From Humisphaera borealis (GTDB taxonomy: Bacteria; Planctomycetota; Phycisphaerae; Tepidisphaerales; Tepidisphaeraceae), in NCBI RefSeq assembly GCF_015169395.1, contig NZ_CP063458.1:4154001-4218000 (forward strand): a DNA stretch of 64,000 bases. The letters run 5' to 3'. Both the position numbers and the translations under genes were made by a program. The notes beneath the pieces are model-generated. The model was not told the origin of the DNA. It was given only the letters and a program-made list of their open reading frames with translations, and ran no database searches. Position 1 is the stretch's first letter. Each line of letters opens with the position of its first letter. Shown in pieces: positions 4,852 to 10,139 of the stretch.

Positions 4852-5638
4852 TAAGGGGACATCACTCTTTTCTGTTGACTCCCGCCAACCGTAATGGCTA
4901 TCCTTTCGTCCGTGCCACGTACCGCCCGCTCCATCGCCGCAGGGGGATTCTACCATGTCCTCAATCGCGGCAACGGACGGCAGGCGATCTTCCACAAGGA
5001 CGCCGACTACGACACCTTCTGCCGCATCTTTGCCGACGGGCTGCGGCGATATCCCGTGAAACTCTACTGCTGGTGCCTGATGCCCAATCACTGGCACCTG
5101 ATCCTGTCGCCGGAGGACGCCGACGCCATTGGCAGGCTGCTGGGGTGGGTCGGCGTCACGCACGTGCGTCGGCACCACGCCCATTATCACACTGCCGGCG
5201 GCGGACACCTGTACCAGGGACGGTTCAAGAGTTTCCCGATCGAAGGCGGTAAGCATTTCCGGGCGGTCTGCCGGTATGTCGAGGCCAACCCCCGCCGGGC
5301 GAAACTGGTGAAGCGGGCCGAAGACTGGCGATGGAGCAGCCTGGCGGCCCACGTCGATCCGCCGGCGGCAAGGCCGGAGGATGTCGCCGCCGACGCGTGG
5401 CCGGCGTTGACGCGTTGGCCGGGGAAGAAGCCGGCGGATTGGGAGCAGCGGGTGAACCGCCCGATCGAAGTCGCTGAGGCCGAGGCGATGAAGTTGAGCA
5501 TCGCGCGGGGCCGGCCGTACGGGTCGGCGACGTGGACCGCCGAGACGGCGAAGAAGCTGGGGCTGGAGTACACGCTCCGCGACCGCGGCCGACCGAGGAA
5601 GGAGCGGGAGGATGAGGGAAAAGAGTGATGTCCCCTTA
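4852..5638 (+). mobile_element. REP-associated transposase unit 1 with perfect 20-bp inverted ends
   Basis: The unit is bounded by TAAGGGGACATCACTCTTTT (4852-4871) and its exact reverse complement (5619-5638), and encloses one Y1-type transposase gene. A second unit of the same kind lies 97 bp further on. No target duplication was seen, as expected for Y1/RAYT chemistry. Confidence 0.85.
4894..5628 (+). CDS. REP-associated tyrosine (Y1) transposase, copy 1
   Basis: A 244-residue RAYT-like protein of the IS200/REP transposase group (HUH endonuclease fold), expected to nick and rejoin single-stranded DNA at palindromic ends. Seen: GGFYHVLNRGNGRQ near the N-terminus, the HUH motif in CLMPNHWHLIL (near residue 68), and the helix VTHVRRHHAHYHT with the candidate catalytic Tyr. 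GHLYQGRFKSFPIE and CRYVEANPRRAKLV follow, all standard for this family, and a basic C-terminal tail closes the protein. The gene fills the unit between the inverted ends. It is nearly identical to copy 2, so the duplication is recent. Confidence 0.93.
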   Translation: MAILSSVPRTARSIAAGGFYHVLNRGNGRQAIFHKDADYDTFCRIFADGLRRYPVKLYCWCLMPNHWHLILSPEDADAIGRLLGWVGVTHVRRHHAHYHTAGGGHLYQGRFKSFPIEGGKHFRAVCRYVEANPRRAKLVKRAEDWRWSSLAAHVDPPAARPEDVAADAWPALTRWPGKKPADWEQRVNRPIEVAEAEAMKLSIARGRPYGSATWTAETAKKLGLEYTLRDRGRPRKEREDEGKE

Positions 5639-5735: not shown

Positions 5736-6522
5736 TAAGGGGACATCACTCTTTTCTGTTGACTCCCGCCAACCGTAATGGCTATCCTTTCGGCCGTGCC
5801 ACGTACCGCCCGCTCCATCGCCGCCGGGGGATTCTACCATGTGCTCAATCGAGGCAACGGACGGCAGCCGCTCTTCCGCAAGGACGCCGACTACGACGCC
5901 TTCTGCCACATCCTCGCCGACGGGCTGCGGCGATATCCCGTGAAACTCTACTGCTGGTGCCTGATGCCCAATCACTGGCACCTGGTCCTGTCGCCGGAGA
6001 ACGCCGACTCGATCGGCAGGCTGCTGGGGTGGGTCGGCGTCACGCACGTGCGTCGGCACCACGCCCATTATCACACCGCCGGCGGCGGGCACCTGTACCA
6101 GGGGCGGTTCAAGAGTTTCCCGATCGAAGGCGGCAAGCATTTCCGGGCGGTCTGCCGGTATGTCGAGGCCAACCCCCGCCGGGCGAAACTGGTGAAGCGG
6201 GCCGAAGACTGGCGATGGAGCAGCCTGGCGGCCCACGTCGATCCGCCGGTGGCAAGGCCGGAGGATGTCGCCGCCGACGCCTGGCCGGCGCTGACGCGCT
6301 GGCCCGGCCGGAAACCGGCGGACTGGGCCGAGTGGGTGAATAAGCCGATCGAGGTCGCCGAGGCCGAGGCGATGAAGCTGAGCATCGCCCGGGGCCGGCC
6401 GTACGGGTCGGCGAAGTGGACTGCCAAGACGGCGAAGAACCTGGGGCTGGAGTACACGCTCCGCGACCGCGGCCGGCCGAGGAAGGTGCGAGAAGATGAT
6501 GGAAAAAAGTGATGTCCCCTTT
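5736..6522 (+). mobile_element. REP-associated transposase unit 2
   Basis: Same architecture as unit 1. The left end 5736-5755 is identical to TAAGGGGACATCACTCTTTT. The right end 6503-6522 is its reverse complement with two substitutions. The space between the two units (5639-5735) carries the start of the broken minus-strand gene. Confidence 0.83.
5778..6512 (+). CDS. REP-associated tyrosine (Y1) transposase, copy 2
   Basis: A 244-residue paralogue of the transposase 900 bp upstream, with the same HUH motif (CLMPNHWHLVL), the HARYH-type helix VTHVRRHHAHYHT and the EANPRRAKLV block. It differs from copy 1 at only a small fraction of residues (for example PLFRKDADYDAFCHILADG instead of AIFHKDADYDTFCRIFADG). 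The start ATG follows the same leader. Both copies appear intact. The element lies between the broken hypothetical gene and the attC-like site, within what looks like a former gene-cassette array. Confidence 0.93.
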   Translation: MAILSAVPRTARSIAAGGFYHVLNRGNGRQPLFRKDADYDAFCHILADGLRRYPVKLYCWCLMPNHWHLVLSPENADSIGRLLGWVGVTHVRRHHAHYHTAGGGHLYQGRFKSFPIEGGKHFRAVCRYVEANPRRAKLVKRAEDWRWSSLAAHVDPPVARPEDVAADAWPALTRWPGRKPADWAEWVNKPIEVAEAEAMKLSIARGRPYGSAKWTAKTAKNLGLEYTLRDRGRPRKVREDDGKK

Positions 6523-6736
6523 TCTTCCTCCCTGTTTCGCGCCTCCGACTATCGGGCTAGCCGCCGCATAACGTAAGGCCGTTGAGCGGCCGCGGCGGCG
6601 CACACGCGACGCTCGACCGCAAGTGAACTATACCGCCGCCGCGGTCCGCTCCAGAGAACCCATGCAATCCCGCCGCCGATCTGTGACGATCGGCGACACC
6701 TCTCACCACAAGAGTTCCTTACCACAGGAGGATTGC

Positions 6737-7843
6737 ATGAGCCTCGCAAAGATCATCGCGCTGGACCTGGGCAAGTTCAAGACCGTCTGCTGCGTGATGG
6801 ATGCGGCGACGCGGGAGTCGGCGTTCGAGACGGTTCAGACCTCTCCCACCTCGCTGCACGAGTTGATCGTCAAACAGCTGCCGCCGTCACCTGCCGACGC
6901 GCTCGTGGTCTTCGAGACCTGCGACCTGGCAGGCTGGGTGCACGATCTGTGTCAGGGGCTGGGCGTCAAAGTGATCGTCACCCACGCCAACGGCGAAGCC
7001 TGGCAGTGGCGACGCGTCAAGCGCAAGACCGATCGCGATGACGCCCTGAAGCTCGCGAAGCTGGCGTTGCTCGATCAACTCGGCCCCGTGCACATGCCGT
7101 CGCCCGACCAGCGGCAGCGGCGACGGCTGGTCCTGCACCGCCGATCGGTCGTCAGCCGGCGGACGCAGAGCCGCAACGCGATCCGTGCGATCTTCAACCA
7201 GCAAGGTCTTTCGCTGGCCAAGGGCGGCAAGCAGTGGACGATTGCCGGGCTCGCCCAATTGCGTGAGCACGCGCGGCCGCTCGCCGAATGCGACCTGGCG
7301 GATCTCTGGCGTGGACGGCTGGAGGTCGAGCTGTCGCTGATGCAGGCGGCCGACGCTCAACTCAAAGTCCTCGACGCCAAGCTCGACGAACTGGGAAAGC
7401 ATGATGCGCGGATCCAGTTGCTGCAGACAGTGAAGGGCGTCGGGCCGCGAGTCGCCGAGGTGGTCGTGCTGCACCTGGACGACCCGCACCGTTTCAAGTC
7501 GGCGGACCACGTCGCCGGCTACGCGGGGCTCGTTCCCAAACAGATCGAAAGCGGTCAAATGAGCCGCTTCGGACACATCACCGGGCGAGGGCCGGCGCTC
7601 TTACGGAGCATGCTGGTGGAGGCGGCGTGGGTGGTGTGGCGACACAACGCCTGGGCACAGGCGTGGGTGGCGAAGATCTCGCGCGGCAGCCGGGCGAGGC
7701 GGAAGATCGCGATGGTGGCGCTGGCGCGGAAGCTGCTGACGATGCTCTGGTCGATGATGAAGCACAACCGGCCGTTCCAGACGCCGACAAGCGGTCCGCC
7801 GATGGCGGCGTTACCACTGCCACCGATGTTGGCACTGGCCTGA
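6737..7843 (+). CDS. IS110-family (IS1111 subgroup) transposase
   Basis: A 368-residue DEDD-type transposase/recombinase. Seen: an N-terminal RuvC-like domain with IIALDLGKFKTVCCVMD, VVFETCDLAGWV and RKTDRDDALKLAKLAL supplying the acidic residues. The C-terminal transposase_20 domain (about residues 230-330) has LLQTVKGVGPRVAEVV, YAGLVPKQIESGQMSRFGHI and the serine region of IS110 enzymes. The ATG at 6737 is preceded by AGGAGG at ideal spacing; longer upstream readings run through element ends and are not credible. Family members move as circles and choose targets with a bridge RNA. The position in an attC-like site suggests the attC-targeting branch of IS1111. Confidence 0.93.
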   Translation: MSLAKIIALDLGKFKTVCCVMDAATRESAFETVQTSPTSLHELIVKQLPPSPADALVVFETCDLAGWVHDLCQGLGVKVIVTHANGEAWQWRRVKRKTDRDDALKLAKLALLDQLGPVHMPSPDQRQRRRLVLHRRSVVSRRTQSRNAIRAIFNQQGLSLAKGGKQWTIAGLAQLREHARPLAECDLADLWRGRLEVELSLMQAADAQLKVLDAKLDELGKHDARIQLLQTVKGVGPRVAEVVVLHLDDPHRFKSADHVAGYAGLVPKQIESGQMSRFGHITGRGPALLRSMLVEAAWVVWRHNAWAQAWVAKISRGSRARRKIAMVALARKLLTMLWSMMKHNRPFQTPTSGPPMAALPLPPMLALA

Positions 7844-8245
7844 CGCCGATTGGAAAAACACTGACAAGTTGAACGATCGGGTACGACGACAGCAACGAGA
7901 GAAGACCGAACAAGAGATGAACGCCACGAGATGTTGAAGGTTCCGCCGAAGCTTTGCCAGAAGCGCACCCTCGTGCGAACGAGCCTGCAGACCGCGACTA
8001 ACCAGGTGCACGGGTTGTCGACGTGCGATCCAGCGAATGCGGCGCAGGCCTCGTCTGGGTGAATGCGGCTCCGGACCCTGAGGTTCGGATGACCAGCGAA
8101 TAGTCGTGTGAAGCGCACGCGGACGCGGACGGCAGCGAAAACGGAACCGGAGACGAAGGAATGAATGAAGAGCCGCCGCTGTGCGGCGACGGGAACGCGC
8201 GCTCAAAATTTACTGTTGATCGAGAGCGGGATTCATAGTCGGCGG
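7844..8245 (+). ncRNA. Candidate bridge-RNA region of the IS1111-type element
   Basis: About 400 bases between the transposase stop and the right end contain no credible gene. In IS1111-subgroup elements the bridge RNA is encoded downstream of the transposase, so this is where it should lie. I could not identify guide loops by eye, so the RNA limits inside this stretch are unknown. Confidence 0.4.
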
Positions 8246-8270
8246 GTTATGCGGCGATTGACGTCCCCTT

Positions 8271-8669
8271 TCAAGGTAGCTTAAGCACACCAACGTCTAT
8301 TCCGGACCGTGGCGGCCCTTTTCCGTCGAAACGTAGCCCTCCGCTGACCTGAGTCGTGGGCACCGCTTTGCCACCCGATGTGACGACGACGGTGAAACGG
8401 GGATCGGGAACCCACATCAGCAGGCCGACAGCGGCCACCTCGACCAGCTTGCTCCGCTCGCTTACGCGGAATGTGCCGTCGTTTCGCGTGACTGTGACAG
8501 CGACGTCTTCGCCGCTCCAATCGCGAAGGGAGACCGTCGCGCCGGCAACGGAGGCCGAGGCGTTGTCTACGACCCGCCCGCGAACGGAAGGCACATTCAC
8601 GTACGTCGCGCACCCCGAACACAAGGAGGCTATAGCGAACGCCCAAACGAGGCATTGTCTTCGCCACAT
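8271..8669 (-). CDS. Cassette-borne lipoprotein with carboxypeptidase-regulatory-like domain
   Basis: A 132-residue protein. MWRRQCLVWAFAIASLCSGC is a lipoprotein signal peptide ending in the lipobox Cys. A beta-sandwich follows with GRVVDNASASVAGATVSL and VTRNDGTFRVSE, the pattern of carboxypeptidase-regulatory-like/Ig-like domains in surface proteins. The start codon lies inside the attC-type box: the minus strand reads GTTATGTGG, so the gene begins immediately at the cassette edge, as is frequent in compact integron cassettes. With the IS removed, the cassette from box to box is about 500 bp. The function is unknown; an envelope location is expected. Confidence 0.7.
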   Translation of the reverse strand: MWRRQCLVWAFAIASLCSGCATYVNVPSVRGRVVDNASASVAGATVSLRDWSGEDVAVTVTRNDGTFRVSERSKLVEVAAVGLLMWVPDPRFTVVVTSGGKAVPTTQVSGGLRFDGKGPPRSGIDVGVLKLP

Positions 8670-8750
8670 AACGGACCAACGTTCAATGGCCGGCACCGCG
8701 CCGGTCGGTTTTGATTTTACCGAAAGCTTTAACGCGGGGCCGGTCCATTG
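8666..8750 (-). other. attC-like recombination site 2 (one half, joined to an IS remnant)
   Basis: Outer box ACATAAC (8666-8672; GTTATGT on the minus strand), then 11 bases, then a stem pairing 8684-8700 (CAATGGCCGGCACCGCG) with 8733-8750 (CGCGGGGCCGGTCCATTG). One mismatch and one unpaired T at 8744 interrupt it, and the loop is 32 nt. Spacing and the position of the unpaired base match site 1 exactly, although the stem sequence differs, as expected for attC sites. The second box is missing because the IS copy that follows is truncated. Confidence 0.75.
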
Positions 8751-9244
8751 CAGAGAACCCATGCAATCCCGCCGCTGATCTGTGACGATCGGCGACACCT
8801 CTCACCACAAGAGTTCCTTACCACAGGAGGATTGCATGAGTCTCTCAAAGATCATCGCGCTGGATCTGGGCAAGTTCAAGACCGTCTGCTGCGTGATGGA
8901 CGCTGCCACGCGTGAGTCGGCGTTCGAGACGGTCCAGACCTCTCCAGTCTCGCTGCACGAGCTGATCGTCAAACAGCTGCCGCCGTCGCCTGCCGACGCA
9001 CTGGTGGTCTTCGAGACCTGCGACCTGGCAGGCTGGGTCCACGATCTGTGTCAGGGCCTGGGCGTTCGAGTGATCGTCACACATGCCAACGGCGAAGCCT
9101 GGCAGTGGCGACGCGTCAAACGCAAGACCGATCGCGACGACGCCCTGAAGCTCGCGAAGCTGGCGTTGCTCGATCAACTCGGCCCCGTGCACATGCCGTC
9201 GCCCGATCAGCGGCAGCGGCGACGGCTGGTCCTGCACCGCCGAT
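8751..9244 (+). mobile_element. Truncated second copy of the IS1111-type element
   Basis: It starts with the same left end as the full copy and at the same place relative to the attC stem. Homology to the full element stops abruptly at 9244, where a transposase fragment of the other family begins. Only the leader and about 136 codons of the transposase remain; the right end is lost. Confidence 0.85.
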
Positions 9245-9522
9245 TGGCTACTCTTTCGCCCGTGCCACGTACCGCCCGCTCCATCGCCGCCGGGGGATTC
9301 TACCATGTTCTCAATCGAGGCAACGGACGGCAGGCGATCTTCCACAAGGACGCCGACTACGGCGCCTTTCTGCCGACGAGGCCGCCCGGCGAAGGCGGCG
9401 AGGGCGGAGAATCCCTGGGTCGTGAGCCGTTCTTGGCCTGTTCTGCGTCTCATTTTTCGGTCTACGGGCCGGAAACGGACGGCGGGCAAAAATCGGGTTG
9501 CAACTTTCCGCGCAGGATATAA
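8836..9522 (+). pseudogene. Chimeric ORF: IS110 transposase N-terminus fused in frame to RAYT N-terminus
   Basis: From the ATG at 8836, preceded by AGGAGG, the frame gives about 136 residues of the IS110 RuvC-like domain ending RRRLVLHRR. It then passes without frame change into LATLSPVPRTARSIAAGGFY, the RAYT N-terminus, for about 40 residues, then into unrelated sequence to a stop at 9522. Both catalytic parts are incomplete: the transposase_20 domain and the HUH motif are absent. It is probably a decay product, although the fused frame is open for 228 codons with a good ribosome-binding site. Confidence 0.7.
9245..9376 (+). mobile_element. Truncated third copy of the REP-associated transposase unit
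   Basis: The stretch corresponds to about the first 45 codons of the two intact RAYT genes (GGFYHVLNRGNGRQAIFHKD) and then diverges. The left inverted end and start codon are missing (ATG is replaced by TTG at the junction). Its right limit is accurate to within about ten bases. Confidence 0.8.
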
Positions 9523-9757
9523 CATATACCGTACAAACGTGCCGGCGCCGGTCCGGGTTTCTGCCGCCCCGTCGGCGGGTGATCTCCGTGCGCGGCGCTG
9601 GCGGGTGTGATCCGTTGGCGTGGGCGTCGACTCCGCGGAGAATAATGAGAGCCGGGCGATTGGTGTTGATCGCGCCGGAGGGTCTGGTTTTGGTGGGTCG
9701 GAGACGTGGAGAGCGTAAAAGACGGTGAGACGGGGTGCGCAGGCTGATCGATCACTT

Positions 9758-10139
9758 GGGTTCGTTCGGCGCTGTCGTCTTGGGTTCGTTCGGCTAACAA
9801 GCCGACGGCGCAGCGTACTCGCGGAGCCCCGGGTTTACCGGCGGGATCTCGGGTTCGTTCGGCAGGAGGGCGCCATGTCAGGGACCCTTACGGCTGAATC
9901 AGTGACACGGGCTTCCAGGTGCGTGCGTGCAACGTCGTGGTCGATCGGCGCTCCGAACGACGGCTTCCAACGTCATCATTACCGACCATTTAGTGATTGC
10001 GAAGAGCTGAAGATGCGAAATGAACGGCTACCTTACGAATTATGCACCTCGCACGGGCTGGAAGCCCGTGTCACTGACGGGGTCGTTCGGTAAGAGGCTC
10101 TCGGGTTCGTTCGGCCGGGTTGCGCTGGGTTCGTTCGGC
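9758..10139. repeat. Five copies of a 13-bp repeat GGGTTCGTTCGGC
   Basis: Perfect copies at 9758-9770, 9782-9794, 9851-9863, 10103-10115 and 10127-10139, plus a variant at 10079-10090. All have the same orientation and irregular spacing (about 24 to 250 bp). They are not a CRISPR array, because repeat and spacer sizes are wrong. Role unknown. Confidence 0.85.
10044..10080. repeat. REP-like palindromic repeat, copy 1
   Basis: Contains the palindrome CACGGGCTGGAAGCCCGTG flanked by GCACCTCG and TCACTGACGG. Related copies in this window lie at 9899-9923 (partial, inverted), 10181-10217, 36414-36443 (inverted), 36505-36543 and 43332-43367. Confidence 0.85.

What the first reader, a model, noticed from the sequence alone, without database searches (positions are those of the whole stretch)
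6566..8750. Integron-type cassette with two attC-like sites and no integrase in view
Two sites share the same layout: a 7-bp box of GTTATGY type, 11 bases, and an imperfect stem with one unpaired T at the same position, seven bases from the stem end. The loops are 37 and 32 nt, while the stem sequences themselves differ. Between the sites is one minus-strand lipoprotein gene whose ATG overlaps the box GTTATGT. Without the IS the cassette is about 500 bp, a normal cassette size. Gene direction agrees with the site polarity deduced from the unpaired base. This looks like part of a cassette cluster lacking an integrase (CALIN), here carrying an envelope protein.
Basis: partly seen in the sequence, partly recalled or inferred. 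Interest (0 to 1): 0.85.

Follow-up and report, generated by a model that had tools for sequence, protein, structure and literature searches.

The report
Integron cassette remnant hit by RNA-guided IS
The two sites are genuine integron recombination sites (attC) around one gene cassette in a planctomycete chromosome, each split by the same IS110-family insertion sequence that specifically seeks attC sites, with the matching integron integrase 1.86 Mb away in the same genome.

Summary
A covariance model built from seven uninterrupted sites elsewhere in this genome finds both window sites genome-wide (49.0 bits, E=1.4e-10; 35.3 bits, E=2.7e-6). The genome holds 19 such sites at E<=1e-3. Eleven of 26 genomes of the order carry them, often every 400-600 bp, and the stem covaries strongly. 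A true integron integrase (TIGR02249, 347 bits) lies 1.86 Mb away beside a perfect 100-nt attC; relatives have complete integrons with the same sites. The window is therefore a two-attC CALIN with one 522-bp cassette encoding an orphan lipoprotein.

Every copy found in this genome, and three diverged relatives (77, 72 and 50% identical), sit in attC in one orientation. Their ends and downstream noncoding region resemble IS1111-type, seekRNA-guided elements. In nine related elements the three bases after GRATAG in that region match the target's right flank (26 of 27). Such insertions probably freeze cassettes. This is a new planctomycete member of known kinds (CALIN; attC-targeting IS).

The parts
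6566..6572 (+). attC site 1, R' box (GCATAAC on +, the inferred bottom strand; GTTATGC on -)
   Evidence: R1 model hit 6566-6665, 49.0 bits
6573..6653 (+). attC site 1: 11-nt spacer, stem arms with extrahelical T at 6645, loop; ends where the IS begins
   Evidence: fold; R1 hit
6654..8238 (+). IS110-family insertion sequence, complete copy, 1585 bp (left end GAGAACCCATGCAATCCCGC, right end GCGGGATTCATAG; ends uncertain by 1 bp)
   Evidence: comparison with the copy at genome 7162651-7164261 (94% identical) and with empty attC sites
6737..7843 (+). IS110 transposase, 368 aa (DEDD_Tnp_IS110 + Transposase_20)
   Evidence: Pfam; NF033542 214 bits, above its cut-off; PDB relatives IS621 and ISCro4
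7983..8118 (+). candidate seekRNA / bridge RNA in the downstream noncoding region (inferred); closing helix CGACTA (7995-8000) with TAGTCG
   Evidence: conserved among four related elements, consensus fold with 8 pairs changed on both sides; positions
8098..8106 (+). GAATAG^TCG: inferred right-target guide; TCG equals the right flank at 8239-8241
   Evidence: 3-nt rule in nine related elements, 26/27 matches
8239..8252 (+). attC site 1, remaining spacer and R'' box (GTTATGC 8246-8252), cut off by the IS
   Evidence: flank comparison
8271..8669 (-). cassette gene: 132-aa predicted lipoprotein, weak CarboxypepD_reg match (31.1 bits, cut-off 32.3), no homologue found in 293 other genomes of the phylum
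8666..8672 (+). attC site 2, R' box (ACATAAC on +; GTTATGT on -), overlapping the gene's ATG
8673..8752 (+). attC site 2: 11-nt spacer, stem arms with extrahelical T at 8744, loop; R'' box missing
   Evidence: R1 hit 8680-8755, 35.3 bits; fold
8753..9247 (+). truncated second copy of the same IS, in the same place and orientation in site 2; runs into a Y1-transposase (RAYT-like) fragment
   Evidence: 94% identical; alignment

Best explanation
The region is a small cassette cluster without integrase (CALIN) in a planctomycete chromosome. It holds one 522-bp gene cassette (an orphan lipoprotein gene on the minus strand, followed by its own attC, site 1), preceded by the attC of a neighbouring cassette (site 2). 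Shown: the sites belong to a family of about 100-nt attC sites found in arrays, some next to a bona fide IntI. Shown: an IS110-family element with IS1111-type layout has inserted twice here, at the same point of attC between L'' and R'' and in the same orientation, and in every other attC where its remains or close relatives were found. Inferred: the cassette was placed here by the genome's IntI, now 1.86 Mb away, acting in trans or before rearrangement. Inferred: an RNA from the noncoding region downstream of the transposase gene guides insertion into attC. Inferred: by pulling R'' away from L'' the IS stops the single-stranded attC from folding fully, so IntI can no longer excise or reinsert the cassette.
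For: attC: a model from seven uninterrupted sites scores both window sites; 19 sites genome-wide; 11 of 26 genomes of the order, up to 34 matches each, in arrays; 55 distinct sites give a covariation score of 0.318 against 0.135 shuffled and at most 0.064 slid. Integrase: TIGR02249 347.5 bits (cut-off 265), best PDB relative VchIntI4 8e-59, aligned through the IntI-specific region; perfect 100-nt attC about 1 kb from it; all 4 genomes with IntI above cut-off carry the sites; named Phycisphaerae MAG locus L109 has IntI plus seven attC in a row. IS: complete copies in two attC, truncated copy in a third, right-end remnant in a fourth; relatives L094, L095 and L097 also flanked by attC halves. 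Guide: the three bases after GRATAG match the right flank in 26 of 27 positions over nine elements, permutation 36/362,880; 2/720 with one element per target or lineage.
Against: The attC model came from this genome, not from a published attC model, so the name rests on structure, arrays and IntI neighbourhood. Recombination was not tested. No guide for the left half of the target was found, and the guide motif was chosen after looking at the sequences. The copy at genome 7162651 matches the guide in only two of three bases. The order genomes are mostly drafts, so missing IntI there means little.
Confidence: 0.9

Rival explanations
1. The two sites are a repeat family unrelated to integrons (REP/BIME-like palindromes spread by the Y1 transposases nearby), with cassette-like spacing by coincidence.
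For: Two Y1 (IS200-like, RAYT-type) transposase genes lie just upstream and GGGACATCACT repeats flank some sites.
Against: The sites are about 100 nt with paired R boxes, extrahelical T and G after AAC; they occur in arrays adjacent to IntI in several genomes. The GGGACATCACT motif is absent from five of the seven attC loci checked for it.
Confidence: 0.03
2. The sites are simply the ends or target duplications of the IS110 element, carried with it.
For: The IS abuts both sites.
Against: About sixteen sites without the IS exist in the same genome, some 79-93% identical to one another, and the IS ends are defined by comparison with empty sites.
Confidence: 0.02
3. The IS insertions in attC are incidental hot-spot effects of hairpin DNA rather than RNA-guided targeting.
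For: Structure-targeting elements are known; the left-flank guide was not identified here.
Against: Insertion point and orientation are constant; all detected copies are in attC; the right-flank bases match the NCR motif across elements with different targets; the seekRNA mechanism is demonstrated for IS1111-type elements aimed at attC (PMC11187229).
Confidence: 0.15

Closest known systems
CALIN (cluster of attC sites lacking integron-integrase; IntegronFinder 2.0, PMC9024848)
   Same: Two attC about 2 kb apart, no integrase in the window, a small one-orientation cassette gene between them.
   Different: Both sites are interrupted by an IS, so software scoring whole sites might miss the second; a matching IntI exists elsewhere in the chromosome.
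Planctomycete chromosomal integrons / attC sites (taxon-specific attC models in PMC8352920 include Planctomycetes)
   Same: Same phylum, IntI plus attC arrays; closest named planctomycete IntIs found here are from Phycisphaerae-class MAGs (58-63% identity).
   Different: Sites dispersed over about a dozen places in one chromosome rather than one long array; whether that published model covers these sites was not tested.
IS1111-attC group (ISKpn4, ISPst6; Tetu and Holmes 2008, Post and Hall 2009, cited in PMC11187229)
   Same: IS110/IS1111-type transposase, downstream noncoding region, insertion at one end of attC in one orientation.
   Different: Distant transposase: best plasmid relative is 46% identical (Acaryochloris) and the next about 31%; identity to ISKpn4 itself not measured; exact insertion point relative to that group not compared because those papers are not held.
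IS621 / bridge RNA system (PMC11208160)
   Same: Related transposase (PDB 8wt6, E=4e-14); RNA-guided target choice.
   Different: From established knowledge, IS621 is IS110-type with its noncoding region upstream; here it is downstream, as in IS1111-type elements.

Membership tests
Integron attC site | R box pair (RYYYAAC / GTTRRRY) flanking an L stem, on one folding strand | tested here: met
   Site 1 R boxes GCATAAC/GTTATGC pair 7/7 in the joined flanks; the A at the third position of RYYYAAC departs from the strict consensus. Site 2 has lost one box.
Integron attC site | Extrahelical base(s) on the R''-L'' arm and G after AAC of R' on the bottom strand | tested here: met
   Unpaired T at 6645 and 8744; AACG in both sites; rule from PMC2727003
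Integron attC site | Conserved structure with divergent sequence, in arrays of cassettes | tested here: met
   Covariation 0.318 vs 0.135; arrays
Integron attC site | Recombined by IntI as single bottom strand | not testable with these tools
   needs a conjugation or excision assay
CALIN | At least two attC sites and no nearby IntI | tested here: met
   Two sites; none of the own-genome integrase hits lies in the window; definition from PMC9024848
Integron integrase (gene elsewhere in this genome) | TIGR02249 above cut-off with the IntI-specific region | tested here: met
   347.5 bits vs 265; aligned through the IntI-specific region to VchIntI4
IS110 family | DEDD_Tnp_IS110 plus Transposase_20 domains | tested here: met
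   NF033542 above cut-off
IS1111-type (vs IS110-type) | Long noncoding region downstream of tnp | tested here: met
   about 395 nt downstream against about 83 nt upstream
IS1111-type (vs IS110-type) | Subterminal inverted repeats of 11-13 bp with 7-bp left and 3-bp right extensions | tested here: inconclusive
   CATGCAATCCCGC (left) against CTATGAATCCCGC (right) needs a 1-nt gap; relatives show CTATG(N)AAGCCGGG at both ends
IS1111-attC group | Specific insertion in attC in one orientation | tested here: met
IS1111-attC group | Close transposase relationship to ISKpn4/ISPst6 | not tested
   those sequences were not identified among the plasmid hits
[quoted passage not shown]
   right-flank match supported; left-flank match not found; RNA itself not observed

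The most novel reading that the evidence does not exclude
A separate lineage of RNA-guided IS110-family elements in Phycisphaerae has specialised on planctomycete attC sites independently of the proteobacterial IS1111-attC group. By inserting between L'' and R'' it freezes cassettes in place, making it a recurrent cause of dispersed, immobile cassette clusters.
Probability: 0.4. Interest if true: 0.5.

Novelty: new member of a known kind. Interest (0 to 1): 0.4.

Why it matters
It documents integrons with dispersed cassettes in a little-studied planctomycete order, and shows that attC-seeking, probably RNA-guided insertion sequences exist outside the proteobacteria. The nine related elements with different targets give a simple, testable 3-nt rule for where the right-target guide sits in this group's RNA. 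The interrupted sites offer a test of whether such insertions immobilise cassettes.

Tried and rejected
RF01161 was tried as a possible attC entry but is SNORD5. A simple R-box/fold scan gave many false hits but did find the perfect site beside IntI. A single-protein scan of genome contigs for the transposase found nothing; the genome search gave relatives instead. The Tetu and Holmes paper is not held. For the left-target guide, AATGC in GCGAATGCGG looked complementary to GCATT of the target, but GAAT is conserved in relatives with other targets, so it was dropped; CCGGACC (complement of GGTCCGG) is not kept in the same place in L094 and L095. A REP origin of the sites was considered and rejected because of the IntI-linked arrays. 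The idea that every such IS110 in the class aims at attC was rejected: L099/L106 sit in what reads as an IS3-type transposase gene, and no attC match above noise was found by L100-L105.

Full report
Observation. The sequence at 6566-8750 is as described. Site 1 starts GCATAAC (6566-6572) and site 2 ACATAAC (8666-8672); each is followed by 11 bases and an imperfect stem with one unpaired T (6645, 8744). Both fold. The minus-strand gene starts at 8669 inside GTTATGT and codes for 132 aa with an LCSGC lipobox. It has a sub-threshold CarboxypepD_reg match and no homologue in 293 other genomes of the phylum; orphan ORFs are common in cassettes (general knowledge).

Are the sites attC? A scan of fetched regions found a 100-nt hairpin with matching R boxes about 1 kb from an integrase gene. 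Similar sites elsewhere in the genome gave seven uninterrupted examples, aligned, folded and made into covariance model R1. Neither window site is in the model. Searching the 7.19-Mb genome, R1 finds 19 sites at E<=1e-3, among them site 1 (49.0 bits, E=1.4e-10) and site 2 (35.3 bits, E=2.7e-6). They lie in about a dozen places: singles, pairs (2106 kb; window) and short arrays (574-577 kb, 5095-5097 kb). In the order, 11 of 26 genomes carry them, many in arrays every 400-600 bp. On 55 distinct sites, 90.9% of pair cells are standard pairs and the covariation score is 0.318, against 0.135 when shuffled and at most 0.064 when slid (the alignment was fitted to the model, which favours the structure, and relatedness inflates the shuffle contrast).

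Integrase. The genome encodes one IntI (genome 6021297-6022262, minus): TIGR02249 347.5 bits against a cut-off of 265, aligned to VchIntI4 through the IntI-specific region. It is transcribed away from a gene that ends at the perfect attC. Four of the 26 genomes have IntI above cut-off and all four carry the sites. A named Phycisphaerae MAG (L109) has IntI with seven attC in a row. No IntI lies in the window, so by the definition of at least two attC without integrase (PMC9024848) this is a CALIN.

Polarity. Extrahelical bases lie on the R''-L'' arm, and the base after AAC of R' is usually G (PMC2727003). Both fit the plus strand being the bottom strand, so cassette genes should run on the minus strand, as the lipoprotein gene does. 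The cassette is then the gene plus site 1, 522 bp without the IS.

The insertion sequence. Comparing the window copy with a 94%-identical copy at 7162651-7164261 and with empty sites puts the IS at 6654-8238, 1585 bp. It lies inside site 1; the second R box is at 8246-8252. Site 2 is hit at the same point by a fragment of a second copy (8753-9247) that runs into a Y1-transposase remnant; its second R box is lost. A right-end remnant at genome 577095 also abuts an attC half. Thus every copy or remnant found in this genome is in attC, between L'' and R'', in one orientation. Relatives L094 (72%), L095 (77%) and L097 (50% identical transposase) in two other genomes of the family are also flanked by attC halves. 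More distant relatives (39-47%) sit elsewhere.

How the IS probably finds attC. The element has IS110 domains but a long noncoding region downstream and near-matching subterminal repeats, as in IS1111-type elements. For these a seekRNA from that region was shown to select the target, including attC for ISKpn4 and ISPst6 (PMC11187229). In four related elements the region has a conserved fold with 8 pairs changed on both sides. In nine elements with several different targets, the three bases after the last GRATAG equal the three bases flanking the right end in 26 of 27 positions; permuting flanks reaches this in 36 of 362,880 orders, and in 2 of 720 with one element per target or lineage. Two further copies of these elements (L015, L106) match in two of three bases. 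The motif was picked after looking at the sequences, so these figures are optimistic. No left-flank guide was found.

Consequence (inferred). Moving R'' 1.6 kb from L'' removes the R-box pairing of the folded site, so IntI should no longer recombine it; the cassette here is flanked by two such sites and is probably frozen.

Known or new. CALINs, planctomycete attC (PMC8352920) and attC-targeting IS1111 elements are known. What is added is a planctomycete lineage of attC-targeting elements, and a comparative rule for one guide.

Noticed in passing
window 4894-5628 and 5778-6512: Two near-identical Y1 (IS200-like, RAYT-type) transposase genes, each bounded by GGGGACATCACT / AGTGATGTCCCC repeats, directly upstream of site 1.
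   Followed up: partly
L031 and L036 (genome about 162-164 kb): The same GGGACATCACT repeat unit interrupts or abuts attC sites there, so RAYT-type elements may also land in cassette arrays.
   Followed up: no
L099 and L106: Related IS elements (47% identical transposase) are inserted in what reads as the DNG codons of an IS3-type transposase gene, resembling the target reported for ISEc21.
   Followed up: partly
L108: A contig labelled Methylococcaceae carries an IntI 58% identical to this planctomycete one plus four attC of the same family: horizontal transfer or mis-binning.
   Followed up: no
G022:C383 (L095 region): Truncated copy of the attC-targeting IS, an IntI-like fragment (9262-9495) and several attC on one contig: probably a decaying integron.
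   Followed up: no
window 9756-9866 and L017 2689-2797: Repeated TTGGGTTCGTTCGGC-like motifs near cassette regions, shared between the window and the 577-kb array.
   Followed up: no
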